DNA from: a virus
Length of the DNA stretch: 39,685 nt
IMG/VR virus record: IMGVR_UViG_3300028384_000779
Span: 1-39,685 of that record
Direction: 5' to 3' (one strand)
The notes beneath the pieces were generated by a model that saw only the letters and a program-made list of their open reading frames with translations, made no database searches and was not told where the DNA came from. Positions 19 through 16,334 of this stretch are shown here, in pieces. The translations under genes and the position numbers were made by a program. Within the stretch, counting starts at the first letter, position 1. Each line of letters opens with the position of its first letter.

Positions 19-3000
19 TTAGGCTACTCTCACCCACAATTTAATTGTGCTGTGGGTTGTCTGGGTAGACTGTACAGTGAGACCTGCCCAAGAATTATCG
101 TACTGTCCACTATACTGCTTAACATAGTTTCCAGTAAACGTGCCTTCATACGAAGCAATGTACTGTTTTGTGTACTGTCCTATATATGTCTTGGTGTATG
201 TCTTGTTGAATACCCCTTCAAATGTACCAGTATATTGCTTGGTGTAGTATCCTTCAAAAATTTGAGAATATTGACCTTGATACAATTTTGTGTACTGGCC
301 AATATATGCTTTCTCAAATTGGTTCAAGAATGTACCGTCGAACGTACCTTCATACTCTTTCGTGTACACTTTCAAGTACGTGCCACTGTATTGTCTTTGG
401 AATGATCCTTCGAACGTTCCAGTGTACTGACCAAGGTAAGTCTTTGTATACTGACCAGTATACGTTCCTACCCAGACTTTCACGAAGTCGCCAATGTACG
501 TACCTTCATAAGCCTTGTTGAAGGTTCCTTCAAATGAATTTCCAAACGACCCTTCATATGACTTAGTAAACTGTCTACTGTATTGCCCGGTATAACTCTT
601 AATATAGTTACCTGTAAACGAGCCTTCGTACTGCTTAGTATAGTTGCCGAGATACGTTTTGTTGTAAGAGCCTTCATACTGTTTAGTAAACGTACCTTCG
701 TATTCTTTGCTGTAGACTTTTAGATAAGTTCCGCTATACTGACGCTGGAAAGTACCCTCAAACAATCTGCTATACTGACCGACATAGCTCTTTGTAAATT
801 GTCCAACGTATGCACCAACATACGTTTTGTTATAATATCCAGTAAAGGTGCCTTCATATTGCTTAGTAAATACGCCTTCGAATTGCTTAGTGAATGCCCC
901 TTCAAACTGTCTACTGTACTGTCCAGTATAGCTCTTAACATAATTACCAAGGTACGTCTTATTAAATGTGCCTTCATAAATCTTATTGTATATGCCTAAG
1001 AACGTACCTTCATACTGCTTAGTGTAGTAGCCTGTAAACGATCCTTCATATTCCTTACTGTAAACTTTTAGATAAGTTCCGCTATATTGTCTCTGGAACG
1101 AACCTTCAAATGTTCCTGTATATTGGCCAATGTAAGTTTTCGTAAACTGTCTTGAGTAGACCCCTGTATAGGATTTTACAAAGTTTCCTGTAAACTGCCC
1201 AGCATATGATCTAGTGAACACTCCTTCAAACAATCTGCTGTAAGCGCCAACATAAGATTTAGTATACTGACCAGTGTAAACGCCTACATAAGTCTTCGTA
1301 AAGTTCTTATCAAACGAACCTTCATACTGCTTAGTGTATTGGCCAAGATATGTTTTAACATATGCCTTCTGCCATCTTGCTTGCCACTGCTTAGAGTACG
1401 TACCTGAATACACGCCTTGATATGCATGTGCACCTTCATATACGCCAACATAGTATCCAGTATAAATTCCAGAGTATGCTTTAGTATAAGTCTTGTTGTA
1501 GTAGCCAGTATAGTATCCAGTGTAATCACCAGCATATGTTCTTGAACCAGACCACAACTTAGCATATGCCTTAATGTACGCTACACTTATGTACGTCTTA
1601 TTGAATGCACCTTCAAACGATCCAGTGTACTGACCATTGTAGGTTCTAGTACCCTCGTACTGACCTGCGTATGACTTGATATACTGGGGTGCGTAAGAAC
1701 GGAGATAGTTTGTTGTGTATTGTCCTGTGTATGTTCTTGTACCAGCGTATGCTTTAGTATACGCTTTGTTGTATGTACCTTCGTACTGCTTTGTATAGAA
1801 CCCTGTGTATGTTCGCGAACCTTGGTACTGCGCTGCAAACTGACCAGCGTAGTGCTTGCTGAAAGAACCTTGGTAAGACTTGAGATAGTGTTTGACATAG
1901 CTTTTCGTATACGCCCTATTATAGTTACCAACATAATTTTTAGTGAACACGCCTTCATACAAAGCGCTGTAAATGTTAATATAATTCTTTGCATACAGTC
2001 CAGTGTATACTGCCAGATACTGTTTGTTAAATGATCCTTCGTATTGTTTAGAGTACTGCTTAACAAAAGCGCCTTCATACAGTGCTGTGTATTGCTTATT
2101 GTACTGTCCTACGTAAACCTTTAAGAATAAGCCAGTGTACGTCTTTGCGTACTGCTTAGCATACACGCCTTCATAATTCTTAGCGTAGTTTGTAGTATAG
2201 GTACCAGCATATGCGCCTTCATAGTTTTTACTGAATTGACCTGAGTACGCACCTTCATAGTTCTTACTAAACTGGCCAGTATACGTACCGCCATAAGAAC
2301 CAGTATAAACGCCTGCATACCCTTTGTTGTAAATCCCTTCATACGTCTTAGTATAGTTGGTACCATACGTTCCGCTATAATCCTTAGCGTAGTTTTTATT
2401 GTAATCACCAACATAGTTAGTTGCATACTGCTTGTTGTAGTTGGTTACATACGTTCCTGAGTAAGCGCCTTCGTAGTTCTTTGAGTAGTATCCAGTATAT
2501 GCAGCACCGTAGTTTTTATTGTATGTGCCAGTAAACGTGCCTTCGTATTGTTTATTAAAGGCGCCAGTAAACTGTCGCGTATAATGTTTAACGTAACTCT
2601 TTAGATACTGCTTTAAATAATTTCTACCATACGTACCAGAAAACTGTCTAGCATAGTTTCCGCCGTAATTCTTTTGCCAGTTTACTGCATATGTTTTTGT
2701 CCAGTTCTTAGCATATACGCCAGTATAAGCTCTTACATAAGCTCCAGTGTATTGCTTAGCATAGTTAGTCGCATAGTATCCAGTATACTGACTTGCATAG
2801 TTTCCAGAATAATTCTTCGTGTAATTGATAGTGTAATCTTTATTATAATTACCAGTATACGAACCAGAGAACGTTCTAGAATAAATGCCGGTGTATTGTC
2901 TATTGTAATTGATTACATAATCTTTATTGTAGTTGCCAGTATACGAGCCAGAGAACAAGTTTTCATACAAACCTGTATATTGTCTGTTATAGTTGATAGT

Positions 3001-5838
3001 GTAATCTTTATTATAGTTACCAGTATAGGATCCACTAAACACTCTCTCATACAAACCAGTGTATTGTCTGTTATAATTGATTACATAATCTTTATTATAG
3101 TTGCCAGTATAGGCTCCGCTGAACGCTCTCTCATACAAACCAGTGTATTGTCTGGTGTAGTTAACTACATACTGTTTATCATAGTTTCCAGTATATGAGC
3201 CAGAGAAAGTTCTAGACCAAAGACCCGTGTAAGCTCTTTGATACGCAATTACATAATTCTTTGCATAGTTGGCACCGTAGTATCCAATATAAACGCCCGA
3301 ATATGCACCAGCATAATTCTTCGTATAGTTTCTAACATAATCTCGGCTGTAGTTAGCTCCGTAGTATCCAGTGTATGTTCTATTATAGTACCCAATATAT
3401 GTAGAGCCAAACTGACGGGCCCAGTTCTTTGCCCATGCTTTCTGGTATGCACCTACCCAGTTGCGGGCATATGTGCCAGTGTATTGCTTTAAGTAATTGG
3501 TACCATACTGTCTGTTAAAGTTGCCCGTAAACTGTCTCGCCCAAATTCTATCGTATACACCAACCCACGCTTTCTGCCAAATCTTAGTGTAGTTGCCTGA
3601 AAACGTTTTGTTATATAATCCGGTATAGCCTCGGCTGTAATACCCAACGTATTGTCTATCGTAGTTCTTAGTCCAGTTACCAGTCCAGTTCTTAGTGTAG
3701 TTTACGTTACCAGTATACTGAATAGTTCCACCGCCGCCAGCATAATTAGCGCTGTAGAAACCTGTAAAGGACTCTTCTAATTCTGGATCAAATACAGTAC
3801 CACTCCATCCAGGACCAAGATAGTTAGTAGCAATATCGTTACTGTAGTTTACAGTGCCAACCCAGTTACCAATAAACACTCTGGTATAGTTGAGTGCGCC
3901 CTTTGCACCTGAGTTAAAGAACTGAGAATAATATCCAAGGAACGTGACTGATCTAGCATAGTTTGTTGCAGGACCTGTAAACTGTGCAGTGCGAGTGTAG
4001 TTGATTGCATAGTAGCCAATATATACTCTGTTGTATCTTCTAACCCAGTTACCTTGCCACGCTCTAGTCCACGTTTCAGCAACTTGTCTAACATAGTTGC
4101 CCGTGTAAATTCTATCATAGTTTACTAGGAACGTGCCAGTGTAGTAACCAGTAAAGTAACCTTCGAACAGGCGTTGATATGTTTTAGTCCACTGAACAAG
4201 ATAGTTAGTGCCATAGGTACCAGAATAGTATCCAGTGTATGTGCCTGAATAAAATGCTTGAGAATGCTTTACCCATGCCTTTGTCCATTGAACTGTCCAG
4301 TTACCAGCCCACGCCCTTGTCCAGTCACCTGCCCAAGCCTTAGCAAACTGCTTGACGTAATTCTTCTGGTAGTTTGTTGCATAGTATCCCGTGTATGCAC
4401 CTGTCCAGTTACCAGCCCACGCTTTACCAAACTGTCTAACGTAATCCTTGTTATAGTTTCTAGTGTATGTGCCAGAGAATTGTCTTTCATAGGCACCGGT
4501 CCACTGACGTTGCCATAACCCAGTATATGCCTTCTGATAGCTTGTACCATACGTTCCGCTAAACTGTCTATTATAAGCACCAGTCCACTGACGTTGGTAT
4601 AATTTTACGTAATTCTTTTGATAATTGGTCGCATAGGTTCCACTAAACTGTCTATTATAAGCACCAGTCCATTGACGCTGATACAGCTTGACATAATTCT
4701 TTTGATAATTGGTAGCGTACGTACCACTAAACTGTTTATTATAAGCACCAGTCCATTGACGCTGATACAGCTTAACGTAATTCTTCTGATAGTTAGTCGC
4801 ATACGTTCCGCTAAACTGTCTCTCATAAGCACCAGTCCATTGGCGCTGATACAACTTCACATAGTTCTTCTGATAGTTCCTTGCGTAGTACCCAGTATAC
4901 ACGCTTTCGTAAACACCAGCATAAGCCCTTTGATAGTTTGTGGTGTATTGACCAGTATACGTCTTATTGTATGTACCAGAGTACTGAGCACCATATGCTT
5001 TGTTCCATTGCTTCTGATAGTTTCTTGCATAGAACCCATCGAAGCCTTTTTCATATGCTCCAGTATATTGCTTGAGATACTGCTTACCGTAATTTCTGTT
5101 GTAGTTTATTGAAAATGTTCTAGCATATACGCCAGAATATGTTTTATTATAAAGTCCAACATATTGGCCTACGTACGCTTTGGTCCAGATTTTCTGGTAA
5201 GTACCTGCATATTGCTTCTGCCAGTTTCTAGCATAAATTCCAGTATATGCTTTTTGGTATGTCTTGGTATAATGCTTTGTCCAGTTAGTCTGGTACAGCT
5301 TAGTATAGTTTCTAACATACAAGCCAGTATACTGCTTAAGATATTGTTTGTTCCACTGACCTACTCCAGCATATGCTTTCTGATACTGCTTAACCCATGA
5401 ACCAATGTATTGCTTGGTATAGTGCTTGACAAAGTTAGCTGAATATTCTTTAGTCCAATTGCTTACGTACGTCTTTGTCCACAGACGATCAAACTGACCT
5501 ACATAAGTTTTCTGGTAGGCTTTAGTGTAAACGCCTACATACGTCTTAGTATAATTCTTAGTGTAGTTTCCAGCATACTCTCTAATGTAGGCTGTCTGAT
5601 ATGCCTTAGCATATGCTCCTACATAAGCAGTTTGATAGTTTCCAGTATATTCTCTGGTGTAATTCTGATTGTAGGTTTTAGCGTAGTTTTTATTAAATAC
5701 ACCAACAAACGTTCCGTGCAGGAAGTATCGTATACTGACCGGTGTACGACTTAATGTAATTGGTCGTATACTGACCATTGTACGTTCGCGTTCCTTCATA
5801 CTGTTTAGAGTACACCCTCTGGTAATTAATACCAGCAT
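19..5838 (-). CDS. Giant tetrapeptide-repeat tail fibre, distal (C-terminal) segment
   Basis: This is the 3' part of a fibre gene that starts at 8039. The first ~37 residues of the open frame (about 5838-5731) do not look like a start; they are out-of-frame read-through of the repeat. Real coding in this frame begins near 5728 and runs to the TAA at 19-21. Almost the whole product is a four-residue repeat with Tyr, Phe or Trp at every fourth position and Gly, Lys or Arg two residues later (for example NYTKTYVGVYTKAYQKTY). If the chain is beta, the aromatic and the Gly/Lys/Arg positions fall on one face, as expected for a fibrous trimer; this is inference. A non-repeat island with an acidic loop (FDPELEESF) lies around 3720-3960. 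The last ~20 residues leave the repeat and end in KLWVRVA. It follows the 1177-aa repeat fibre and the S74 fibre, which supports a tail-fibre role. Confidence 0.7.
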   Translation of the reverse strand: MLVLITRGCTLNSMKERERTMVSIRPITLSRTPVSIRYFLHGTFVGVFNKNYAKTYNQNYTREYTGNYQTAYVGAYAKAYQTAYIREYAGNYTKNYTKTYVGVYTKAYQKTYVGQFDRLWTKTYVSNWTKEYSANFVKHYTKQYIGSWVKQYQKAYAGVGQWNKQYLKQYTGLYVRNYTKLYQTNWTKHYTKTYQKAYTGIYARNWQKQYAGTYQKIWTKAYVGQYVGLYNKTYSGVYARTFSINYNRNYGKQYLKQYTGAYEKGFDGFYARNYQKQWNKAYGAQYSGTYNKTYTGQYTTNYQRAYAGVYESVYTGYYARNYQKNYVKLYQRQWTGAYERQFSGTYATNYQKNYVKLYQRQWTGAYNKQFSGTYATNYQKNYVKLYQRQWTGAYNRQFSGTYATNYQKNYVKLYQRQWTGAYNRQFSGTYGTSYQKAYTGLWQRQWTGAYERQFSGTYTRNYNKDYVRQFGKAWAGNWTGAYTGYYATNYQKNYVKQFAKAWAGDWTRAWAGNWTVQWTKAWVKHSQAFYSGTYTGYYSGTYGTNYLVQWTKTYQRLFEGYFTGYYTGTFLVNYDRIYTGNYVRQVAETWTRAWQGNWVRRYNRVYIGYYAINYTRTAQFTGPATNYARSVTFLGYYSQFFNSGAKGALNYTRVFIGNWVGTVNYSNDIATNYLGPGWSGTVFDPELEESFTGFYSANYAGGGGTIQYTGNVNYTKNWTGNWTKNYDRQYVGYYSRGYTGLYNKTFSGNYTKIWQKAWVGVYDRIWARQFTGNFNRQYGTNYLKQYTGTYARNWVGAYQKAWAKNWARQFGSTYIGYYNRTYTGYYGANYSRDYVRNYTKNYAGAYSGVYIGYYGANYAKNYVIAYQRAYTGLWSRTFSGSYTGNYDKQYVVNYTRQYTGLYERAFSGAYTGNYNKDYVINYNRQYTGLYERVFSGSYTGNYNKDYTINYNRQYTGLYENLFSGSYTGNYNKDYVINYNRQYTGIYSRTFSGSYTGNYNKDYTINYTKNYSGNYASQYTGYYATNYAKQYTGAYVRAYTGVYAKNWTKTYAVNWQKNYGGNYARQFSGTYGRNYLKQYLKSYVKHYTRQFTGAFNKQYEGTFTGTYNKNYGAAYTGYYSKNYEGAYSGTYVTNYNKQYATNYVGDYNKNYAKDYSGTYGTNYTKTYEGIYNKGYAGVYTGSYGGTYTGQFSKNYEGAYSGQFSKNYEGAYAGTYTTNYAKNYEGVYAKQYAKTYTGLFLKVYVGQYNKQYTALYEGAFVKQYSKQYEGSFNKQYLAVYTGLYAKNYINIYSALYEGVFTKNYVGNYNRAYTKSYVKHYLKSYQGSFSKHYAGQFAAQYQGSRTYTGFYTKQYEGTYNKAYTKAYAGTRTYTGQYTTNYLRSYAPQYIKSYAGQYEGTRTYNGQYTGSFEGAFNKTYISVAYIKAYAKLWSGSRTYAGDYTGYYTGYYNKTYTKAYSGIYTGYYVGVYEGAHAYQGVYSGTYSKQWQARWQKAYVKTYLGQYTKQYEGSFDKNFTKTYVGVYTGQYTKSYVGAYSRLFEGVFTRSYAGQFTGNFVKSYTGVYSRQFTKTYIGQYTGTFEGSFQRQYSGTYLKVYSKEYEGSFTGYYTKQYEGTFLGIYNKIYEGTFNKTYLGNYVKSYTGQYSRQFEGAFTKQFEGVFTKQYEGTFTGYYNKTYVGAYVGQFTKSYVGQYSRLFEGTFQRQYSGTYLKVYSKEYEGTFTKQYEGSYNKTYLGNYTKQYEGSFTGNYIKSYTGQYSRQFTKSYEGSFGNSFEGTFNKAYEGTYIGDFVKVWVGTYTGQYTKTYLGQYTGTFEGSFQRQYSGTYLKVYTKEYEGTFDGTFLNQFEKAYIGQYTKLYQGQYSQIFEGYYTKQYTGTFEGVFNKTYTKTYIGQYTKQYIASYEGTFTGNYVKQYSGQYDNSWAGLTVQSTQTTHSTIKLWVRVA
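25..1420 (-). repeat. 348-nt higher-order repeat, distal array
   Basis: A near-identical run coding QRQYSGTYLKVYSKEYEG recurs with its anchor base at 373, 721 and 1069, spacings of exactly 348 nt (116 residues, 29 tetrapeptides). The array is therefore made of long units that were duplicated as blocks, in addition to the basic 12-nt period. Confidence 0.75.
2800..3240 (-). repeat. 84-nt tandem repeat block A (28 residues)
   Basis: The anchor string coding the QYTGLY or QYTGIY part recurs at 2889, 2973, 3057, 3141 and (diverged) 3225, each 84 nt apart. Each unit codes 28 residues, seven tetrapeptides, of the type NYNRQYTGLYERVFSGSYTG followed by NYNKDYVI. Confidence 0.85.
4457..4880 (-). repeat. 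84-nt tandem repeat block B (28 residues)
   Basis: The anchor coding the RQWTGAY part recurs at 4497, 4581, 4665, 4749 and 4833, each exactly 84 nt apart. Units read NYQKNYVKLYQRQWTGAY plus a variable residue pair, then QFSGTYAT. The unit length equals that of block A although the sequence differs. Confidence 0.88.
5707..5734 (-). other. Frame change 2 in the giant fibre gene
   Basis: The middle fragment reads IKSYTGQYT to about 5729, while the next frame becomes repeat-like at GTFVGVFNKNY from about 5715 downward. Between the last Tyr codon (5732-5734) and the next in-register Phe codon (5707-5709) there are 22 bases, where the four-residue register needs 21. That fits a one-base excess. 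It does not compensate the change near 6085, so the three segments use three different frames. Confidence 0.6.
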
Positions 5839-5924
5839 ACGCCTTATTAAAGTATCCTGTATATTGGCCCGTGTAAGTTCTAGAACCTGAGAACTGTCTT
5901 GAAAATTGACCGATGTATGTTTTT

Positions 5925-7250
5925 ACCCAGTTGCCAACATATGCCTTCTGATACTGATCTGCATACTGCCCAGCAAACGTGCGTGAGCCCGAGTATACTC
6001 CTTCATACGTGCCTTCATATGTCTTGACATAGTCTTTGGTGTAGGTGCCTTCGTAATTGCCGGCAAACACGCCTTCAAACTGTCTGACGCCGGTACTGTT
6101 TTGTAAAGATGCCAGTAAATGTGCCTTCATATTGACCAACATACGCCTTTGTGTATGAGCCAGAGAACTGTCTTGAATAAGTTTTGTTAAAGACGCCAGT
6201 AAACGATCCCTCGTACTGCTTATTAAATGCACCTTCGAACTGACGGCTGTATTGGCCAGTGTATGATTTTAGATACGTACCGACATACTGACCAGTATAT
6301 TGCTTTACATAAATTCCAGAATACACGCCAACGTATGTTTTTGTAAACTGTTTGTTAAACGCGCCTTCGTATGATTTTGTGTACTGGCCAGTGTAAGTCT
6401 TTACAAAGTTGCCTAGATACGTTTTATTGAATACACCTTCAAACGTGCCCGTAAACAGTCCAAGGAACGTCCCAGTATATTGACCAACGTAAGCCTTTGT
6501 GTACTGACCAGTATAGTTTCCTACATACGTCTTAGTGTAGTTGCCAAGAAACGTTCGTTGATATTGTTTCGTGAAAACGCCTTCAAACGTTCCTTCATAC
6601 TGACCGGTATATGATTTTAGATATGTTCCGACGTATTGGCCTGTGTACTGTTTAATGTAAATTCCAACATACGCCTTTTCATATTGACCAGTGTATGTTT
6701 TAGTATAATTTCCAATGTACAGTTTTTCATATTGACCAACGTAAACGCCAGTATATGTTTTATTAAACACGCCCTCAAACGTACCAGTATACTGTTTAGT
6801 GTATACACCTAAGAACGTGTTGTCATATATGCCTGTGTACGTCTTAATATACGTACCAGTAAATGCTCTGGAATACGTATCAGTAAAATATCCAGTAAAC
6901 GTTCCTTCATATTGTTTCGTGAACGATCCTTCAAACTGGCGGCTATACTGACCAGTATAAGACTTTAGATAAGTTCCGACCCATTGACCAACGTATTGTT
7001 TTGTATAGATGCCAGTGTAGGTACCTACAAACGAACCTTCATACTGCTTGAGGAAAGTTCCTTCATATTGCTTTTCGTAGTTACCAGTAAATGTGCCTTC
7101 ATATTGGCCAACATAGGTTTTGGTAAACTGTCTACTATACTGTCCTGTATAGGACTTTATGTAATCCTTGGTAAACGAACCTTCGTAATTCTTTTCCCAT
7201 GCGTGAGTGTAGACGCCAGTATATACGCCAGTATATGTTTTATTGTACAG
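5925..7250 (-). repeat. 348-nt higher-order repeat, proximal array
   Basis: The DNA coding TYLKSYTGQY recurs with an AGAT anchor (plus strand) at 6271, 6619 and 6967, spacings of exactly 348 nt. This is the same long period as in the distal array of this gene, and the anchors are related in sequence (TTTAGATAAGTTCCG at both ends). Confidence 0.75.
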
Positions 7251-8039
7251 TCCAACGTAAGTTGCACCGTAAGAAGAATCTGTTACATTGTATCGAGTGT
7301 CAGTGATGGTGCCACGTTCTTCCCACGTTTCTCCAGGGCCAGCTGGATTAGACGCAGACAGCTTATACTGACCAATTCCTGTACTTGATATTTGATTTCT
7401 TAGTCTTGCAGTTAGTGTCTTAATGTCTGCATCAGACATTTCTCTGATGCTACTAGTGTTGTACAGTTTAGCAGGTCGAGTAGTAGAAGGAGCAGATACA
7501 CCCTTTGTCTTTCTCAACAAATAGTATACAGTCGATCCAGTAGTATTAGTAGAGAACTGCGAATCAGTTATTGTAGATCCAGTGTTAGTATACAGATCTG
7601 AGTCTGGATTCGATGAAGCAATTATGTATGATCCTAGACCATTTGCAACCAAATTAGATAGTGCACGGTCAATCAGCACATCGTTAAGGTTGTTACTATG
7701 CTCTGCAGCATACCCATTGTCGTCAATGAATAACGGATACACCATTGACGATTCAGATGCAGATGACAGATTTTGTCTCAGTGTGTACGTAGTAGTTGCT
7801 GTGGTATAAGGACCGGGATGATCTCCTACTGCGGATGCATCAGTGTATTTGGTATCGTCAAACGTTCCCGCATCGGTGCCTTGGCCACCGATGTTAATGG
7901 TTCCCTCAATGTTACTGGTATCAGTAGCGAACTGTGTCAGGATCTGATGAACCGCATAGTCCATCTCTGTGTCGGTCATCTCCTGTAAGCCAAGAAATGT
8001 TCCTCCACCAGTTGCTTTGATTCTTAAAGGGTTACCCAT
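6075..8039 (-). CDS. Giant tetrapeptide-repeat tail fibre, proximal (N-terminal) segment
   Basis: It starts at ATG 8039, seven bases after the stop of the upstream fibre gene, with no strong Shine-Dalgarno sequence. A perfect late box TATAAATA lies 51-58 bases upstream (8090-8097, minus strand). Residues 1 to ~255 are non-repetitive and begin MGNPLRIKATGGGTF...EMTDTEMDY, an N-terminus of the kind seen on structural proteins of marine T4-like phages; I take it as the virion-attachment part. From about residue 260 the aromatic tetrapeptide repeat starts and continues to the end. The reading frame closes at TGA 6075-6077, just after a 4-base excess in an RQF-coding unit; dropping four bases (ACAG) restores RQFEGVF in the next frame. 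As it stands the product is 654 aa. The intended protein would run on to position 19, about 2670 residues. Confidence 0.75.
   Translation of the reverse strand: MGNPLRIKATGGGTFLGLQEMTDTEMDYAVHQILTQFATDTSNIEGTINIGGQGTDAGTFDDTKYTDASAVGDHPGPYTTATTTYTLRQNLSSASESSMVYPLFIDDNGYAAEHSNNLNDVLIDRALSNLVANGLGSYIIASSNPDSDLYTNTGSTITDSQFSTNTTGSTVYYLLRKTKGVSAPSTTRPAKLYNTSSIREMSDADIKTLTARLRNQISSTGIGQYKLSASNPAGPGETWEERGTITDTRYNVTDSSYGATYVGLYNKTYTGVYTGVYTHAWEKNYEGSFTKDYIKSYTGQYSRQFTKTYVGQYEGTFTGNYEKQYEGTFLKQYEGSFVGTYTGIYTKQYVGQWVGTYLKSYTGQYSRQFEGSFTKQYEGTFTGYFTDTYSRAFTGTYIKTYTGIYDNTFLGVYTKQYTGTFEGVFNKTYTGVYVGQYEKLYIGNYTKTYTGQYEKAYVGIYIKQYTGQYVGTYLKSYTGQYEGTFEGVFTKQYQRTFLGNYTKTYVGNYTGQYTKAYVGQYTGTFLGLFTGTFEGVFNKTYLGNFVKTYTGQYTKSYEGAFNKQFTKTYVGVYSGIYVKQYTGQYVGTYLKSYTGQYSRQFEGAFNKQYEGSFTGVFNKTYSRQFSGSYTKAYVGQYEGTFTGIFTKQYRRQTV
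6081..6092 (-). other. Frame change 1 in the giant fibre gene (4-nt excess)
   Basis: On the minus strand the reading is TACCGGCGTCAGACAGTTTGAAGG. Sister units in the same gene read TAC-AGC-CGT-CAG-TTC-GAA-GG (Y S R Q F E G). Removing ACAG, or equally one copy in the overlapping CAGACAG, restores the sister pattern. The frame then passes from the proximal segment to the middle fragment. Confidence 0.7.
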
Positions 8040-8045
8040 GTACTA

Positions 8046-11000
8046 TTAAGCCTTATATTTGAATGCTGCGTCGCCGTATACGTTTCCAGTATTTATAAAT
8101 GTTACTCTAGCCGCACTATAACCTTTAATAGCTGACCCGGGTAAACCACCATCTCCTGATTGCGCATATTGCGAGTAATTAGTGCCGGGATTAGTTTCAT
8201 CTTGTGAGCTATCCTCACTAGTAAAACCTCCTGCTCCAATACCAGCTTGACCTAATAGTCCTCCATCTCCCCCATGTATTCCGTAATGTACCGCAGAATT
8301 CGTACCATTAATTTTGCTAGACGATTCTGTAATATATGTAACAAAAGTTCCTCGATGATATCCAGCACCAAATCCACCTTTACCTCCAGCTAATGTAGCG
8401 GAAGAACCGTTGATGGGATATCCACCGCCGCCACCGCCACCACCGCCGCCGGCGATAGTACCATAGTTCTCAATGTAAAGATCAACATCACCATCCATCT
8501 TGATAGCATGGCCACCATATGAACCGGACGTACCAAGTCTAGTTGTCGTGTTGACTCCGCCCTGTCTACCTGAAGATCCAATGATGCCGCCACCATCTTC
8601 AACTTTAATTTTGACTTTATGTCTGAACTCACCCCTCACCAGGTTGAGCGTTGTAAGATCGAGTGCAACATTAGCAGTATCTTGTGTAACACTAGTTAAG
8701 GCACCTGTCTGATTGTTACCAAACATAAACGTGCCTGCAGCAATATTGATTTCTAAATGCTGTGGTCTACTACCAGGTGACTTGCCTAATGCTTCTAATT
8801 CTGTTCTTACATTATAATTGAAAGTGTTAGATGTAATGTTAATCACCGAGCGTTCATATCCAACGTGCGCTGTTTTCCACTCATCGTTTTCTTTAACACG
8901 AACAGCAATGATTTCTTTCCACTCGTCGTTTTGTTTTACTCTGAGCGTTTTAACTTGCTTGAACTCATCTCCTTCTTTGACCTTAGTAACAACGCCAGCA
9001 GTCAATTCTCCAGACTTAGTGTTTGCTACATCTGTCGTTTTGATATATGATTTGTTATATCCTACTAGGCCTTCATACGAATTCGTGTAGTAGATGTTAC
9101 CGTTGTAAGCCAGAGTTGGAGCAGGACCAGCATATACGCCGCCATAGCTCTTAGTGTATTGACCAAGATAGGTTTTAGTATAAGTGCCAACATAAGCCTT
9201 CTCATACAGCTTACCGTAGTCTTTTGTAAACGCACCTTCGAATTGTTGATCAAACGCTCCAGTAAATGACCCTTCGTATTGACCAAGGTATGTTGCCGTA
9301 TACAGACCAATGTATGTTTTTGTATATTGGCCAGTGTATGTTTTTGTGTATCCTTTTAGATAGCTCTTATCATATGTTCCTGTGTACAGACCAGTGTACT
9401 GCGCATTAAACAAACCGCTAAACAGTCTTGAGAACGTGCCCACAGTTTTACCGTTGTACGTTTGGGGTCCTTCAAATAAGTTCGAATACACACCTTCCCA
9501 CTGCTGTATAAAGAATCCTTCATACTGCTTCGTATAAATGCCTGTGTAGGTTCCCTCATATACACCAACGTACGTTTTAGTGTAAACGCCTTCGTATTCT
9601 TTTTGATAGTTTTTAGTAAAGTATCCTGTGAACGAGCCTTCATACTGTTTAGTAAACTGACGAGAGTAAGTACCTTGCCAGTAGCCAATATAATCTCTGC
9701 TACCAGCATACGCTTTCTGATATTGCTTATCCCAGTTCTTATGATAACCGCCAGACCAGTTTTTAACATAAGCGCCAATATAATCTCGGCGATAGTTAAT
9801 ATTGTATTGCTTTAAGTATTGGCGCAAGTATACGCCAGTATACGCTCCAGTATAAACACCAGCCCACACCTTACCATATGCGTCAGTGTAGTTTTCAGTG
9901 TACTGTTTGTTAAAGAATCCAGTCCAGTTTCTCTGATATGTTTTAGTGTAGGAACCAGCATACACACCAGTGTACACGTTTTGCCAAACACCACCATAAA
10001 ACTTTTGATATTGTCTGGTGTAGTTGGTGGCATAATTCTTATTATATGTTCCTTGGTATGTTCCATCAAACGTACCAGTGTACTGCTTACCATATTGGTC
10101 CGCATATGTCTTAACATACGAACCTTGCCACTGCTTATCGTAGTTGCCAGTGTACGCTCCGGAATATTGTTTAGTAAATTGGCCCGCGTAGTTTTTCGCA
10201 TATTGCTGTTGCCAGATGCCTAAGAAGTGCCTTGTCCAAGATGCAGCGCCTAGATAATTAGTACCAAAATATACTAGTCCTTGATAAATATCTTCGAAGT
10301 CATCTGATTGGAAGTATCCTACTCTAGCATAAGTAGGAGCTCCGGCCCAGTTTCTTGTATTAGCACCTTCATATTGTCCAGCCCACAGTCCTGTATATGA
10401 AGAGCCACCTGAGTACGCTGAAGCATAAGATCCAGCGTACTGCGAAGCATACGCACCAGTCCAGTTTCTCTGATATCTTTTAGTGTATTGACCGACGTAT
10501 GCTCTATCGAATGTACCTGACCACAATTTGGCATATGCGCCTGCATATGTTCCGGTCCACTGACCTACATATGCCTTCTGCCAAATTTTACCATATTGCT
10601 TAGCATACTGTCTAGTCCAATAACCAGTATAATTCTTATTATAATCGCCTGAGAATGTGCCAGCATACTGTTTATTGTAGTCGCCGACGAAAACACGGTT
10701 GTAGGTCTTTTGATATGCTTTCTGCCAAATCTTGGAATAGCTGTTACCAAAGTACCCAGTATAGTCACCAGAATACTCGCCCGAATATTGTCTTTCGTAA
10801 TTCGTGCCCCAGTGCTTCTCAAAGTTTTTCTGAAACTGGCCTTCATATGATTTCTGGTATGCTTTATTCCAAACTTTGATATAACGCTTAGTATAGTTTC
10901 TAGTATAGAAGCCATCGAAAGTAGCGTATGATTGATAAGTTCCTGTAAAGTATCCAGTATACTGCTTATCAAACAACTTAGTGTATACGCCTTCATACTC

Positions 11001-11579
11001 TTTCTGATAATTCTTAGTGAAGTATCCAGTATAGTCCTTAGTGTAGTAACCAGTGTAGTATCCTGTGTACGTACCTTCGTAAGCCTTTTCGAATTGACGA
11101 CTGTATATACCAATTCCGTCTCTTGCAAACTGACCGGTGAAAGAACCACCATATTGTGTGTTGTAAGGACCGCCAGAGAAGTTGCCTTGATATTGACCTT
11201 CCCATTGCTTTGCCCACTGCTGCGAGTATGTGCCGGTGTATGTCTTTACGTACGCTTTAGTATACGTCTTATTAAAGTATCCTGTATACTGTTTATCAAA
11301 TGCGCCTTCATAGCTCTTATTGAAAAAGCCCGTAAACTGTCTTGAGTAAATTCCAATGAAGGTACCAGTATACTGACCGAGGTAGACCTTTGTCCATATC
11401 TTACCATACTGCTTGGTATAAACGCCCTCATAATCTTTGTTGAAGAATCCTGTGTATGTCTTGACGTACCCGCCCACGTACAAAAGCGTAGGCGTGACGG
11501 TATTGAGTCCAGCATAAGAATGCGTGAAATCTCTTGTCGTAGTACCTAGGTACGTTTTTGCGTAGTTAATTGTTGCCAC
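8046..11579 (-). CDS. Tetrapeptide-repeat tail fibre with poly-glycine adhesin end
   Basis: It starts at GTG 11579 behind an AGGAGA Shine-Dalgarno sequence. Residues ~5-845 are the aromatic tetrapeptide repeat found in the next gene, interrupted around 10250-10450 by a non-repeat island with an acidic loop (FQSDDFEDIY). Residues ~848-900 carry three copies of a KVKEGDEFK / RVKQNDEWK / RVKENDEWK motif, a connector common in phage fibre tips. Residues ~900-1177 are a distinct C-terminal domain with Gly-rich runs: ten glycines at ~1043-1052, then GGKGGFGAG and GIHGGDGGLLG. Such runs recall the polyglycine-II sandwich of T-even gp38-type adhesins (S16 gp38), so this is the likely receptor-binding end. 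That assignment is by pattern only. The gene is a probable paralogue of the giant fibre gene downstream, which lacks this tip. Confidence 0.75.
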   Translation of the reverse strand: MATINYAKTYLGTTTRDFTHSYAGLNTVTPTLLYVGGYVKTYTGFFNKDYEGVYTKQYGKIWTKVYLGQYTGTFIGIYSRQFTGFFNKSYEGAFDKQYTGYFNKTYTKAYVKTYTGTYSQQWAKQWEGQYQGNFSGGPYNTQYGGSFTGQFARDGIGIYSRQFEKAYEGTYTGYYTGYYTKDYTGYFTKNYQKEYEGVYTKLFDKQYTGYFTGTYQSYATFDGFYTRNYTKRYIKVWNKAYQKSYEGQFQKNFEKHWGTNYERQYSGEYSGDYTGYFGNSYSKIWQKAYQKTYNRVFVGDYNKQYAGTFSGDYNKNYTGYWTRQYAKQYGKIWQKAYVGQWTGTYAGAYAKLWSGTFDRAYVGQYTKRYQRNWTGAYASQYAGSYASAYSGGSSYTGLWAGQYEGANTRNWAGAPTYARVGYFQSDDFEDIYQGLVYFGTNYLGAASWTRHFLGIWQQQYAKNYAGQFTKQYSGAYTGNYDKQWQGSYVKTYADQYGKQYTGTFDGTYQGTYNKNYATNYTRQYQKFYGGVWQNVYTGVYAGSYTKTYQRNWTGFFNKQYTENYTDAYGKVWAGVYTGAYTGVYLRQYLKQYNINYRRDYIGAYVKNWSGGYHKNWDKQYQKAYAGSRDYIGYWQGTYSRQFTKQYEGSFTGYFTKNYQKEYEGVYTKTYVGVYEGTYTGIYTKQYEGFFIQQWEGVYSNLFEGPQTYNGKTVGTFSRLFSGLFNAQYTGLYTGTYDKSYLKGYTKTYTGQYTKTYIGLYTATYLGQYEGSFTGAFDQQFEGAFTKDYGKLYEKAYVGTYTKTYLGQYTKSYGGVYAGPAPTLAYNGNIYYTNSYEGLVGYNKSYIKTTDVANTKSGELTAGVVTKVKEGDEFKQVKTLRVKQNDEWKEIIAVRVKENDEWKTAHVGYERSVINITSNTFNYNVRTELEALGKSPGSRPQHLEINIAAGTFMFGNNQTGALTSVTQDTANVALDLTTLNLVRGEFRHKVKIKVEDGGGIIGSSGRQGGVNTTTRLGTSGSYGGHAIKMDGDVDLYIENYGTIAGGGGGGGGGGYPINGSSATLAGGKGGFGAGYHRGTFVTYITESSSKINGTNSAVHYGIHGGDGGLLGQAGIGAGGFTSEDSSQDETNPGTNYSQYAQSGDGGLPGSAIKGYSAARVTFINTGNVYGDAAFKYKA
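8090..8097 (-). promoter_or_regulatory. Late promoter box TATAAATA before the giant fibre gene
   Basis: It is a perfect match to the T4 late promoter -10 box, read leftward, inside the last codons of the upstream fibre gene and 51 bases before the ATG at 8039. No other -35 element is required in T4-type late promoters. Confidence 0.6.
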
Positions 11580-11592
11580 CAGGCTCTCCTAA

Positions 11593-11922
11593 TTAAAGAG
11601 TCTGATACCAGATGTCTCCATCGTTGCCTATAGTGTCATCATCTGGAGCACTAGTAGAGATGTAGAGTTTTTGGTTGGGCGCATGCTCGAATGTTCCAGA
11701 TCCCTCTGAATTAGCTGCAGCGTAAGTCACGCCCGTGACGTTAATACTTGCTTCTGAAGCAGCAGTTACTCTTCCTTTATCATCAACGGTGAAGGAAGCT
11801 AACTGTGTATTATTGGACGTATAATCGGCTGCTGTTACGCCAGAATCGTGCAATGCATCATTTGCTACAAGGCCGTCAGTACCAACGACTACGTTAGCAT
11901 TGTGTAAAATTTGATCAGCCAT
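11593..11922 (-). CDS. Small virion or fibre-associated protein, 109 aa
   Basis: It starts at ATG 11922 and overlaps the stop of the S74 fibre gene by eight bases (ATGGCTGA), which suggests translational coupling; GGGAGG lies about 13 bases upstream inside that gene. A CATAAATA late-type box lies at 12034-12041. The product is Asn/Asp/Thr-rich with no membrane segment. It contains TVDDKGRVTAASEA, a phrase common in phage tail fibres, and ends NDGDIWYQTL, a frequent C-terminal motif of small fibre or collar proteins. No enzyme motif is seen. By context it is a tip, connector or chaperone of the fibre set; its exact role is unknown. Confidence 0.6.
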   Translation of the reverse strand: MADQILHNANVVVGTDGLVANDALHDSGVTAADYTSNNTQLASFTVDDKGRVTAASEASINVTGVTYAAANSEGSGTFEHAPNQKLYISTSAPDDDTIGNDGDIWYQTL

Positions 11923-14900
11923 TGTCTACTTCGCGCCTCCCTTCTAACTCTTTTACTCTACCAGATAACTCTTTGACGGCTTCAATGAGGAGCGGTATCA
12001 AGCTATTGTAGTGTACTGTTCTGTATCCACGGCTATTTATGTTTACAGCGTGAGGTAGGATTTGTTCAATCTCTTGAGCAATTACACCGTACTCTTTCTT
12101 GCCAACTCTTTCATCTTGAATGTTCTGATTCCATTCAAATTCATAACCGCTAACTTGTTCTATTTTACTCAAAGCCGTATCAATAATCAACAAGTTTTCT
12201 TTCAAAAGTTTGTCGGAAGATTGAGCAGCTACGATGTCATCTCTAGCATAGATGTTATCTGCAACAACGTACGATGCAGTACTGTTAGTAAATGCAGAGC
12301 AGTTGATTGTTGAGTTTCCTACTAGCACTTTATCTGCTAGGTGAGCTTCTCCCCATTGGTTACTTGTTGTACCAAGGTCTCTAGATGTTGCATCAGGAAT
12401 GAAGTGAGTGTTAACAACAGCGTTAGCCATGTTAACGGTCACTCTATCATTACCGTTACCAATCTTAATTGAGTTGTTTGCTCCACCGTCTGTTGCAGCA
12501 CCTGTAAATTCTGCTTTATTAGTTACAGTCAAAGTAGCTGCTGTGGTAGTGTCTGTAGTCAGAGTCGTATCACTTGGTAATGTAGCAGAACCTGTGATTT
12601 CTAGATCTGCGGCTTGTAACTTACCTGTTTCAAATTTAACTTGAGTTGAATTTGAAGAAAGGTTTGCATAAACTGTGCTGTTACCGAAATTGACTGTTGC
12701 ATCTTCAAAGCTAGAAGAACTTCTAACTCTTAATGTGTATGTGTTTGCTTCACCAGATGAAGACGTACCAATATCAAGATCGCCTTCACCGATCAAATCA
12801 CCTTCTACAGTAAGATTCTCACCAATGGTACCAGACTTTGCAACACCTAATCCACCTGCTGTTGTTATTGCGCCAGTAGTATTTGAAGTGCTGTTTGTTG
12901 TGGAATCAACATCTAGCGATCCACCAATCAACGCATTGCCAGATGAATTAATTGCCGCAGCAGCAAGGTTCCATCTTCTATCAGCATGTCCTAGAGCAAC
13001 ATCATTTGCATTAGGCTCTAGGCTTGCATCTACCTGAGCGTTAATCGTGATTGTATCATCTGCAGCACTACCAAGATCCAAGCTACCGTTAAATGTAGCG
13101 GTACCTTCAACAGTCAAAGTACTGTCAAAGTCTACAGCACCTGTTGCACCAAGAGTTGCTAGATTGGAGTGACCAGTAACATTAGCGCTTGCGGCTTTCA
13201 TATTACCTTCAAGCACCGAATCGCTTCTTACTCTCAATGTATAAGTGTTAGCTTCACCAGACGTAGTGTTACCTACATCTACTCTTGAACCACCTATTGC
13301 TAGTCGAGCAGTACCAGTAACGTTAGCTGAAGCTTCTGCAACAAAGTCGCCACCAATATACGCTTTCTTTGCAACGCCTATACCGCCAGAGAATTTACCT
13401 GAACCGGTTGTTTTGCTAGACGATTGCGTGGCGTCGGTCACTGTTACGTTGCCGCTAAAATGTCCTGTTTTTGCGCTTAGGACCCATCTATGATCCCCGT
13501 CTCCTAAAGAAACGTTGTTGCCATGTAGCGGAAGAAGACCGATAGTGCTGTTACCCACTGCTGATCTAACTACCAATCTATCTACAGCAACTGTAGCAGT
13601 TGGAACAGTGTTACCAATTATTACTCTGCGATTAGCACCTCCGTTCCAGGTCTCTGCTCGGATAGATGTCGTCGTAGAGTTAGAAACGCTAAAATCAAGA
13701 CCTACGTTGGCACTTCCTGAGATGTTTGCATAGCCATCAACTGTTGCATTTTCAGAAACAGTTAGCAGTCTGGTTCTTGAGTTGTCAGCATTCAAGTTCC
13801 ATTTTAACGATGTTGATCCTAAATCTCTACTGTTTGTAGAGTTAGCAGTTTCGTCAGGTAAGAACGATGTATTCGCCCTTCCTTTAATTTGAATAATATC
13901 TGTAGCTGCGTCACCTAAGATGACACCGCCTTTAATGTCTGTGTTACCGTGAACAGTAAGGTCTTCGCCTACCGTTGCAGATTTAGCAATACCCGCACCA
14001 CCTGAAACTATAATACTACCAGTAGTATTTGAAGTGCTGTTTGTTGTGTCTTCGAACGTTGCTGCACCAGACACTGCAAGAGTACTATTAAGATCCGTTG
14101 CACCTTCAGCTTGTAATGTACCATCAGTGAACACGGCTGTTGTGGATATAGATGTATTGGTGGTCGAGTTACCAACGATAATTGAATTGTCCTTGATAAC
14201 GACTTCAGTATCTGATCCATCGCCGACTGCAATTGCTGTAGTATTAGCGTGAACATCAGCGCCAACATTTAGCTGTACCGTTACGTTAGCTGTTCCAGTA
14301 ATGTGAGCGTCACTCTTAGCTCTAAACAAACCATCAACGTTTGCTGTTGATTGGAACAAAGCTGAACTTACTACATCTAGCTCTCCTGCTACATCAGCGT
14401 TTCCTTCTACATCAAGATTCTCACCAATTGTTACTGTTTTGGCAATACCTGCACCACCGCTTACAACCAATGCGCCAGTTGTATTGGATGTGCTGTCAGT
14501 AGTGTCTTCTACAGTCGTGACACCAGCAACATCTAATGTATCATTAAGGTCCGTGGCACCTTCGACAGTCAACGTTCCGTCAGTATCAATGTTACCCGTC
14601 TGAGCGTCAATTGCACAGTTTGTTGTTGAGTCTCCGACGTAGATATCATCTTGGAATTCAGAAGTACCTTGAACCTGAAGAGTGCTCTCTAGGGTGGTCG
14701 CTCCAGCTACATCAAGCGTGCTATTAAGATCAGAAGCACCAGCAACAGTTAATGTTCCATCTGTATCGATGTTTCCTTCTGTAGAGATGTGGGCGTTTGC
14801 TGTAGAGTTACCGACTGTTAGAGAACCGTCTACTTGAGCGGATCCGTCTACGTTAATATCGGAATCGAAATCTGCGTCTTTTTGTACGTTAAGTTTGTCA

Positions 14901-16120
14901 GTTAAAACTGTGTTAGAGTTAACTGTAAGTAGATCTGAGTTAGCATCACCAATGTTAACGCCAGTACTTGTGATGTTTACGTTCGTAGTCGATATGGTTG
15001 CATTGGCACCAGAAATGTTTACATCAGGTGCGTTAATGTCAACTAATGTAGCACTATCAATATCTACTGTTGCAGAATCAATATCCAGAGTAGTACCATT
15101 GATATTTGTTGTTGTAGAATCTAGATTAGCTGTAGTACCTGCAATGTTTACAGTAGTTGAATTAATATCAGTTAGCGTATTATCAATGTCAATGTCGCTA
15201 TCAAAATCATTAAGCGTAGCTTCAGACTTAAACAGTGAAGCCGAGCTATTAATGATAACTTGATCTGCACCAATGTTTAAATCTTCTGAATCTTCTGTGA
15301 TATTAATGTTAGCAGTGAAGACAGTGTTCGAGTCTACATTGAACTCGCCCGCTGTAGTGTTGCCGTTAATATGAACATTACCAGCATTAATGGTTGTCAG
15401 ATCATTGTCAATATCTACGTTGCTGTTAAAGTCATTTAGAGTTGCCTCTGACTTAAACAACGATGCAGAAGAATTAATAAACACCTCGTCGGCGCCAATA
15501 TTGACATCTAAAGCATCTTCGGTGATATTAACATTAGCAGTGAACGTTGTGTTAGAGTCTACATTAAGCTCGCCAGCAGTAGTATTGCCTTGAATGGTAA
15601 CGTTGCCAGAATTGATAGTAACCAAATCATTATCAATATCAACGTTAGCATTAACGTCCATGATAGTATTGAAAATGTTTACGCCAGCGTTTGATTCAAA
15701 GATATCAGCAGTTGTGTTTACAGTAACGTGAGTGTTATCAGAATTAGAAGTTAACTGGAAACCAACGTTAGTTACAAATACGTTAGACTGGGCATGAATA
15801 ATCGAAGTGTTGTTGCCGTCATCCACGAACACAGCATTCGTTGAAATGACTAGGTTAGCCTGCGGAGACCTAGTTCCGTAATGAGTAACGTTACCAATAG
15901 CACCGCCAATCTCATCAAATACGATCAGCGTATTAGATCCAAAATAACCGTTTACATAACCATTACCAACAGTCTCAGCTCCTTGAGTATTATTAGTAGG
16001 AGCTGTAGTAACCACATACTTTTCCATGTCGTATGTAATTCTGTTTGTAAGATCAACCCACTCTCTAAATGTATCAGATGAGGGGGTAATGTTGGCACTG
16101 GTATAACTATTACTGGACAC
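11915..16120 (-). CDS. Tail fibre with C-terminal peptidase S74 (intramolecular chaperone)
   Basis: It starts at GTG 16120, chosen because AGGAGG lies at ideal spacing and the frame overlaps the upstream gene by 11 bases. The N-terminal ~110 residues (TFREWVDLTNRITYDMEKY) are non-repetitive and probably attach to the virion. Then come three 75-residue repeats (DNA spacing 225 nt) of the NVDIDNDLVTINSGNV type. These are followed by many fibre repeats with the phrase VVSGGAGIAKTVTIGENL and TSNTTGA linkers. The last ~100 residues, from SSDKLLKENLLIID, form an S74 domain: Ser and the nearby Lys are the expected autocleavage residues, followed by the typical EYGVIAQEIEQILP and a C-terminal helix. 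In this family the domain drives trimer folding and then cuts itself off. It is probably one of the host-contact fibres. Confidence 0.85.
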   Translation of the reverse strand: MSSNSYTSANITPSSDTFREWVDLTNRITYDMEKYVVTTAPTNNTQGAETVGNGYVNGYFGSNTLIVFDEIGGAIGNVTHYGTRSPQANLVISTNAVFVDDGNNTSIIHAQSNVFVTNVGFQLTSNSDNTHVTVNTTADIFESNAGVNIFNTIMDVNANVDIDNDLVTINSGNVTIQGNTTAGELNVDSNTTFTANVNITEDALDVNIGADEVFINSSASLFKSEATLNDFNSNVDIDNDLTTINAGNVHINGNTTAGEFNVDSNTVFTANINITEDSEDLNIGADQVIINSSASLFKSEATLNDFDSDIDIDNTLTDINSTTVNIAGTTANLDSTTTNINGTTLDIDSATVDIDSATLVDINAPDVNISGANATISTTNVNITSTGVNIGDANSDLLTVNSNTVLTDKLNVQKDADFDSDINVDGSAQVDGSLTVGNSTANAHISTEGNIDTDGTLTVAGASDLNSTLDVAGATTLESTLQVQGTSEFQDDIYVGDSTTNCAIDAQTGNIDTDGTLTVEGATDLNDTLDVAGVTTVEDTTDSTSNTTGALVVSGGAGIAKTVTIGENLDVEGNADVAGELDVVSSALFQSTANVDGLFRAKSDAHITGTANVTVQLNVGADVHANTTAIAVGDGSDTEVVIKDNSIIVGNSTTNTSISTTAVFTDGTLQAEGATDLNSTLAVSGAATFEDTTNSTSNTTGSIIVSGGAGIAKSATVGEDLTVHGNTDIKGGVILGDAATDIIQIKGRANTSFLPDETANSTNSRDLGSTSLKWNLNADNSRTRLLTVSENATVDGYANISGSANVGLDFSVSNSTTTSIRAETWNGGANRRVIIGNTVPTATVAVDRLVVRSAVGNSTIGLLPLHGNNVSLGDGDHRWVLSAKTGHFSGNVTVTDATQSSSKTTGSGKFSGGIGVAKKAYIGGDFVAEASANVTGTARLAIGGSRVDVGNTTSGEANTYTLRVRSDSVLEGNMKAASANVTGHSNLATLGATGAVDFDSTLTVEGTATFNGSLDLGSAADDTITINAQVDASLEPNANDVALGHADRRWNLAAAAINSSGNALIGGSLDVDSTTNSTSNTTGAITTAGGLGVAKSGTIGENLTVEGDLIGEGDLDIGTSSSGEANTYTLRVRSSSSFEDATVNFGNSTVYANLSSNSTQVKFETGKLQAADLEITGSATLPSDTTLTTDTTTAATLTVTNKAEFTGAATDGGANNSIKIGNGNDRVTVNMANAVVNTHFIPDATSRDLGTTSNQWGEAHLADKVLVGNSTINCSAFTNSTASYVVADNIYARDDIVAAQSSDKLLKENLLIIDTALSKIEQVSGYEFEWNQNIQDERVGKKEYGVIAQEIEQILPHAVNINSRGYRTVHYNSLIPLLIEAVKELSGRVKELEGRREVDNG
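12034..12041 (-). promoter_or_regulatory. Late-type promoter box CATAAATA
   Basis: It matches NATAAATA, read leftward inside the S74 fibre gene, 112 bases before the ATG at 11922. It could serve the 109-aa gene and the repeat fibre after it. Confidence 0.35.
15120..15700 (-). repeat. 225-nt tandem repeat in the S74 fibre
   Basis: Matching positions of the DID/NVDIDN-coding string fall at 15181, 15406 and 15631, exactly 225 nt (75 residues) apart. Units include the runs FTANVNITED, INSSASLFKSEATLNDF and GNTTAGE. Confidence 0.75.
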
Positions 16121-16334
16121 TATTTCCTCCTAAGGCCCTCAGCATACTTTTGATCTCACTCATATCGTTCTTCAGATCATCGAGCTCTTGACCTAACGAA
16201 TCAATTCGTTGAGCTCTCTTGCGTTGCTCCTTATACTGAGCATATGCTGCTACATCATTATTTATAAGTGCCATGCTAGATGGATCTCTTAGGAACTTTT
16301 GATCTTCTGTTTCAATTAGTATTTTCTTTTTCAT
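16110..16334 (-). CDS. Small coiled-coil protein, 74 aa
   Basis: Its ATG at 16334 overlaps the stop of the DUF4815-like gene (TAATG), and its end overlaps the GTG of the S74 fibre gene by 11 bases, so it sits in a coupled run of three genes. The N-terminus is basic (MKKKILIETEDQKFLRDP), followed by SMALINNDVAAYAQYKEQ. The C-terminal half (DSLGQELDDLKNDMSEIKSM) has heptad-like Leu/Ile/Met spacing typical of a coiled coil. Similar small proteins occur between structural genes in marine T4-like phages. A role as fibre-assembly chaperone or connector is inference. It carries the AGGAGG and a late box for the next gene inside its own sequence. Confidence 0.65.
   Translation of the reverse strand: MKKKILIETEDQKFLRDPSSMALINNDVAAYAQYKEQRKRAQRIDSLGQELDDLKNDMSEIKSMLRALGGNSVQ
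16259..16266 (-). promoter_or_regulatory. Late promoter box TATAAATA before the S74 fibre
   Basis: It is a perfect T4 late box, read leftward inside the 74-aa gene, 139 bases upstream of the GTG at 16120. Confidence 0.55.

What the first reader, a model, noticed from the sequence alone, without database searches (positions are those of the whole stretch)
19..11579. Two adjacent fibre genes built from an aromatic tetrapeptide repeat
About 11 kb codes an almost unbroken [YFW]-x-[G/K/R]-x repeat, roughly 3,300 residues over two genes. Long runs show no other amino-acid pattern. If beta, all aromatics and the Gly/Lys/Arg positions face one side and the Thr/Ser/Val/Asn/Gln positions the other, which suggests a stacked-aromatic fibre unlike the usual triple-beta-helix repeats. 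I know of similar repeats in marine phage proteins, but not of a described structure.
Basis: partly seen in the sequence, partly recalled or inferred. Interest (0 to 1): 0.85.

Follow-up and report, generated by a model that had tools for sequence, protein, structure and literature searches.

The report
Giant aromatic-repeat phage fibre cassette
Two neighbouring genes in a T4-like phage encode very long fibres made almost entirely of a tyrosine/phenylalanine-every-fourth-residue repeat, and in hundreds of related environmental phages this fibre is locked next to a predicted sugar-adding enzyme and two other genes, which suggests a new kind of chemically decorated phage fibre.

Summary
The repeat is real. 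It runs through two genes: 8046-11579 (1,177 aa, ending in a Gp38-type adhesin domain) and 19-8039 (about 2,670 codons). In this contig the second gene is broken by two frame changes (about 6085 and 5715); close relatives carry it as one intact ORF of 2,093-2,838 aa. The repeat has no match in Pfam, PHROGs or PDB sequences, and among 50,697 GenBank phage records only Phage C48C1 has it.

The larger finding lies outside the window. In related IMG/VR contigs, fibres with this shaft, a shared N-terminal region and a C-terminal cap (...T..LWVRxA) are followed by the same three genes: a small predicted coiled-coil protein, a GT-A/GT8-type glycosyltransferase with an invariant DxD, and an H-x-N...H...R protein. 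Every contig with DNA beyond the fibre has the glycosyltransferase (42/42). Starting from the third gene alone, 58/58 loci have the glycosyltransferase directly before it and a fibre upstream. The related phage HTVC008M, with the same surrounding gene order, has none of the four.

I propose a long virion fibre that is folded and glycosylated by its own cassette. Fibre: well supported. Modification of the fibre: inferred from linkage. Shaft fold: unresolved (AlphaFold pLDDT 27-34).

The parts
8046..11579 (-). Fibre gene A, 1177 aa: repeat shaft (about residues 1-850), short VKxxDEWK linker repeats, Gp38-type C-terminal adhesin domain
   Evidence: intact homologues in L010-L015
8070..8714 (-). 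Gp38 adhesin-like domain (glycine-rich tip) of fibre gene A, residues 956-1170
   Evidence: Pfam PF05268 E 6.9e-8, 33 bits against a cut-off of 25; PHROG 2056; same domain in 7 of 50 related contigs
19..8039 (-). Fibre gene B, about 2670 codons, present here as three ORFs in three frames; one ORF of 2093-2838 aa in relatives
7275..8039 (-). N-terminal region of fibre B: three tandem modules of about 85 aa (LQEMTDTEMDY-type), presumed attachment part
   Evidence: alignments A1 and A3; no PDB or family match
6075..8039 (-). ORF segment 1 of fibre B (654 aa)
5693..6232 (-). ORF segment 2 of fibre B in another frame; only about 5715-6090 carries the repeat
19..5838 (-). ORF segment 3 of fibre B (1939 aa); the repeat begins at about 5715
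22..93 (-). Conserved C-terminal cap of fibre B (WAGLTVQ...STIKLWVRVA)
11593..11922 (-). Conserved 109-aa protein directly before the fibre pair, also in relatives
   Evidence: PHROG 36881; L263:1401-1730
11915..16120 (-). Separate tail fibre with Peptidase_S74 chaperone C-terminus (1401 aa), no aromatic repeat
16334..23215 (-). 2293-aa virion protein, VrlC-like by synteny; marks the upstream border of the host recognition cluster
   Evidence: PHROG 358, Pfam DUF4815; order compared with HTVC008M

Best explanation
The two genes encode very long virion fibres of a T4-like phage related to cyano- and pelagimyophages. Fibre B attaches to the virion by its modular N-terminus and ends in the LWVRxA cap; fibre A carries a Gp38-type receptor-binding tip. 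The [YFW]-x-[G/K/R]-x shaft is most likely extended beta structure with an aromatic/Gly face inward and a Thr/Ser/Asn/Asp face outward, in an oligomer. In relatives fibre B is the first gene of a four-gene cassette. The small coiled-coil protein (CC) probably helps it fold or assemble, the GT-A enzyme (GT) probably adds sugar to the shaft (Thr/Ser on the outer face, or Tyr as in glycogenin), and the H-x-N...H...R protein (OX) probably oxidises or otherwise modifies it. Shown: repeat, purifying selection, Gp38 tip, synteny, cassette linkage, DxD. Inferred: presence in the virion, oligomer, fold, modification of the fibre, roles of CC and OX.
For: Repeat statistics and selection. Gp38 tip. Position after baseplate and VrlC-like genes. 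GT: Pfam Glyco_transf_8 above cut-off in the clade nearest the window (27.2 against 24.3 bits); DxD invariant in 41/41; in the PDB profile search the top hits are glycogenin-1, each weak (E 0.06-0.8). Linkage: order fibre-CC-GT-OX with near-zero gaps in 39/41 loci; the other two have extra fibre genes between. GT in 42/50 contigs; of the 8 without, 7 end inside the fibre and 1 is not a family member. Reciprocal test from OX alone: GT 58/58, fibre 58/58. In GenBank phages fibre, GT and OX occur only in C48C1. The searched first 99 kb of HTVC008M, including its host recognition cluster, has none.
Against: No proteomics, no reliable structure, no assay. The window contig ends 18 bases past the fibre B stop, so the cassette itself is seen only in relatives. 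In L280/L298 extra fibre genes intervene, and OX has paralogues elsewhere in C48C1, so linkage is not wholly exclusive. Glycosyltransferases near fibres in pelagimyophages were interpreted as host LPS modifiers (PMC7029224). OX has H-x-N where 2OG oxygenases have H-x-D/E, and no profile match to them.
Confidence: 0.6

Rival explanations
1. The fibre is an ordinary receptor-binding fibre and the linked glycosyltransferase changes the host surface (O-antigen) to block superinfection; the two travel together because both are host-specific parts of the host recognition cluster.
For: Pelagimyophage host recognition clusters contain GT8 enzymes interpreted this way (PMC7029224); Pfam GT8 includes LPS glucosyltransferases, and a weak profile alignment to E. 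coli WaaO covers the DxD region.
Against: The association is 1:1, with fixed order and overlapping genes, over families with only 25-35% identity, and the GT was not found in any GenBank phage without this fibre, which a free-standing LPS modifier would not predict.
Confidence: 0.25
2. The shaft is a flexible, largely disordered or phase-separating aromatic-rich tether rather than an ordered beta fibre.
For: Both AlphaFold monomer models have mean pLDDT below 35; the sequence is low in complexity and rich in Tyr and Gly.
Against: The strict four-residue spacing over up to 157 units, two-faced alternation and purifying selection imply a periodic structure. Low pLDDT with 7-9 shallow, repetitive sequences is expected for obligate oligomers too.
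Confidence: 0.2
3. Tyrosines are the chemically active part: the cassette oxidises or cross-links tyrosines (dityrosine-like) to make a tough fibre, with glycosylation secondary.
For: Y is the main residue at the invariant position and a conserved H/H/R protein is always linked.
Against: Several families use F at most aromatic positions (Y share ranges from 0.03 to 1.0), and the third protein is not shown to be an oxidase.
Confidence: 0.08
4. In this phage fibre B is dead or phase-variable because of the two frame changes.
For: Three ORFs in three frames.
Against: Relatives at about 62-65% identity are intact; a contig from repeat-rich environmental reads is prone to local misassembly, and the repeat is unbroken on both sides of each frame change.
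Confidence: 0.15

Closest known systems
Gp38 tail-fibre adhesin (Pfam PF05268) of T-even-type phages
   Same: C-terminal glycine-rich domain of fibre A passes the Pfam cut-off
   Different: There it is a separate protein that caps gp37 (from general knowledge); here it is fused to an 850-residue aromatic-repeat shaft. Fibre B has no such domain
Phage C48C1 hypothetical protein WJE88074 (3347 aa)
   Same: N-terminal region, YxGx/YxRx shaft, YTLYVRVA end, followed by CC-GT-OX
   Different: One gene, no Gp38 domain, interspersed extra domains, super-period of 3 units instead of 7; annotated only as hypothetical
Pelagimyophage host recognition cluster (HTVC008M and metagenomic relatives, PMC7029224)
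   Same: [quoted passage not shown] fibres, GT8 and oxygenase genes are present in that island in the group
   Different: HTVC008M has no aromatic-repeat fibre and no CC, GT or OX homologue there; the paper describes neither the repeat nor the cassette in the passages read
Glycogenin / GT8 glycosyltransferases
   Same: GT-A DxD motif; Pfam GT8 match in one clade; glycogenin is the top PDB family in the profile search
   Different: Marginal E-values for most members; substrate unknown

Membership tests
T4-type tail fibre with Gp38 adhesin tip | Gp38 domain above the Pfam cut-off | tested here: met
   fibre A 33 bits against 25; fibre B has none
T4-type tail fibre with Gp38 adhesin tip | shaft homologous to gp34/gp37 families | tested here: not met
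   no PHROG or Pfam match for either shaft
Triple-stranded beta-helix fibre | trimeric beta-helix structure | tested here: inconclusive
   monomer AlphaFold models pLDDT 34 and 27; no trimer job available
S74 chaperone-terminated fibre | Peptidase_S74 domain at the C-terminus | tested here: not met
   absent in fibres A and B; present only in the separate fibre 11915-16120
GT-A glycosyltransferase (GT8-like), downstream gene in relatives | DxD metal motif | tested here: met
   invariant in 41/41
GT-A glycosyltransferase (GT8-like), downstream gene in relatives | curated GT8 profile cut-off | tested here: met
   27.2 against 24.3 bits in L263; only 5 of 36 members match GT8 at all at E up to 0.1
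2OG-Fe(II) oxygenase, third gene | H-x-D/E...H metal triad | tested here: not met
   H-x-N...H...R-x-T, the N invariant
2OG-Fe(II) oxygenase, third gene | profile similarity to known members | tested here: not met
   no Pfam or PDB hit, hhalign negative
Virion protein | peptides found in purified virions | not testable with these tools
   no isolate or proteome at hand

The most novel reading that the evidence does not exclude
A widespread, undescribed class of phage tail fibre built from an aromatic tetrapeptide repeat, with a dedicated gene cassette that glycosylates and oxidatively modifies the fibre, comparable in logic to collagen or S-layer maturation but encoded by a phage.
Probability: 0.45. 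Interest if true: 0.9.

Novelty: new variant of a known kind. Interest (0 to 1): 0.77.

Why it matters
A perfectly linked glycosyltransferase makes fibre glycosylation in phages directly testable, and the shaft may be a new beta-fibre architecture. It also offers a fibre-centred alternative to the published view that such GT8 enzymes modify host LPS.

Tried and rejected
AlphaFold2 monomers of the N-terminal 420 aa and C-terminal 300 aa of fibre B: unusable, so no fold search was run. DNA-pattern scan of cellular genomes: only low-complexity tandem repeats such as FxGxFxGx. GenBank hits to Synechococcus phage S-RIM2 and Vibrio phage F23s1: rejected; S-RIM2 is an LTGNVTGN repeat without aromatics, and the F23s1 match is a DNA tandem repeat. 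PDB hits to PRDM9 zinc fingers: chance periodicity. Third gene as a PKHD-type or annotated phage 2OG oxygenase: no profile support. Programmed frameshifting as cause of the two frame changes: considered unlikely because relatives have one frame.

Full report
What is there. The window is a complete IMG/VR record of 39,685 bases. On the minus strand it carries a T4-type baseplate module: tail tube cap, gp53-like and gp5-like proteins, PAAR, gp25-like, gp6, gp8-like. A 2,293-aa VrlC-like protein follows, then a 74-aa protein, an S74-type fibre, a 109-aa protein and the two repeat genes. The gp6 protein is closest to Caulobacter phage Cr30 and Sinorhizobium phages (39%). The gene order matches that of Pelagibacter phage HTVC008M, so the repeat genes sit in the host recognition cluster described in PMC7029224.

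The repeat. Fibre A (8046-11579) is 1,177 aa with a Gp38-type tip (Pfam 33 bits against a cut-off of 25). Fibre B (19-8039) is spread over three frames here. The repeat continues through both frame changes. Relatives L011-L015 have fibre B as one ORF of 2,093-2,838 aa, with N-terminal MGNPL... and C-terminal LW[LVI]R[VT]A. I cannot tell whether the frame changes are real or assembly errors. Runs of aromatics at spacing four reach 157 units, against at most 10 in shuffles. Aromatic columns stay aromatic in 278 of 283 comparisons, while synonymous sites are near saturation. A 28-residue super-period (z 6.7) is shared by several relatives, but other families show 3 or 5 units, so it may reflect duplication as much as structure.

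The family. Where the ends are present they share N-terminal modules (PLKxxxxxxLQEMTxxExDY-like) and a C-terminal cap. Over 138 distinct capped fibres the consensus unit is [YF]-[TSA]-G-[NTD], and sizes run from about 344 aa to over 3,700 aa. The statistic on the cap arginine is partly built in by my search expression. Half of 50 contigs carry T4-type gp6 (26 of 50, all fragments). Gp38 tips occur in 7 of 50, mainly in the window's clade. The genome-contig scan gave only low-complexity repeats in cellular genomes.

The cassette. Directly 3' of the capped fibre come a 140-280 aa protein (CC; coiled coil is judged from its sequence only), a GT-A enzyme (GT) and a roughly 230-aa protein (OX). Contigs were chosen by the fibre DNA pattern alone. 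The GT profile hits 42 of 50 once each. Of the 8 without it, 7 end inside the fibre ORF and 1 is not a family member. In 39 of 41 examined loci the four genes follow one another in this order, mostly within about 120 bases or overlapping; in the other two, extra fibre genes intervene. Reciprocal test: 80 loci were chosen by an OX peptide pattern alone. Of 58 with enough upstream DNA, all 58 have the GT; 55 show the fibre automatically, and the remaining three also have it on inspection. In 50,697 GenBank phages, fibre, GT and OX each match only C48C1, with queries from two to four different clades. The searched part of HTVC008M has none.

The enzymes. The GT has invariant RxK, P, Y-x-D-x-D and further W, D, N positions. 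One clade passes the Pfam GT8 cut-off; many others match GT families weakly. The top PDB sequences for the profile are glycogenins, each at E 0.06-0.8. OX has invariant WHxN...N...D..GW..K...H.A...R. The spacing recalls 2OG oxygenases, but the H-x-D/E feature is not met and no profile supports it. I keep 'oxygenase-like' as a motif-level lead only.

Reading. The fibre identity rests on the Gp38 tip, synteny and repeat architecture. Fibre modification rests on linkage, and a hypothesis that the GT acts on the host surface stays open (PMC7029224). Thr/Ser/Asn on the outer face and Tyr on the aromatic face are both possible acceptors. C48C1 also encodes a UDP-glucose dehydrogenase and a nucleotide-sugar epimerase, which fits donor supply but proves nothing. 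The shaft fold is unknown.

Noticed in passing
window 5705-6095: Two frame changes in fibre gene B; cause (real or assembly) unresolved.
   Followed up: partly
L264:7121-16849 (G032): A 3,243-aa repeat fibre with a Gp38 tip next to a fibre B homologue longer than 2,369 aa: over 5,600 residues of fibre in two genes.
   Followed up: partly
L001 (Phage C48C1 OQ984149, protein WJE88074): The shaft is interrupted by several related-looking non-repeat domains of about 130 aa, as if decorated at intervals.
   Followed up: no
OQ984149 18267-18920 and 40130-40804: Two further paralogues of the third cassette gene, one beside the tail tube gene and one beside a NifU-like gene.
   Followed up: no
window, L011, L013, L014, L055, L080: 28-residue (7-unit) super-period of Gly against Lys/Arg units.
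   Followed up: partly
KC465899 57442-59681: HTVC008M carries four annotated 2OG-Fe(II)/phytanoyl-CoA oxygenase genes in a row in its host recognition cluster, near the fibre genes.
   Followed up: partly
window 30963-32024: 353-aa protein in the baseplate module with no PHROG match.
   Followed up: no
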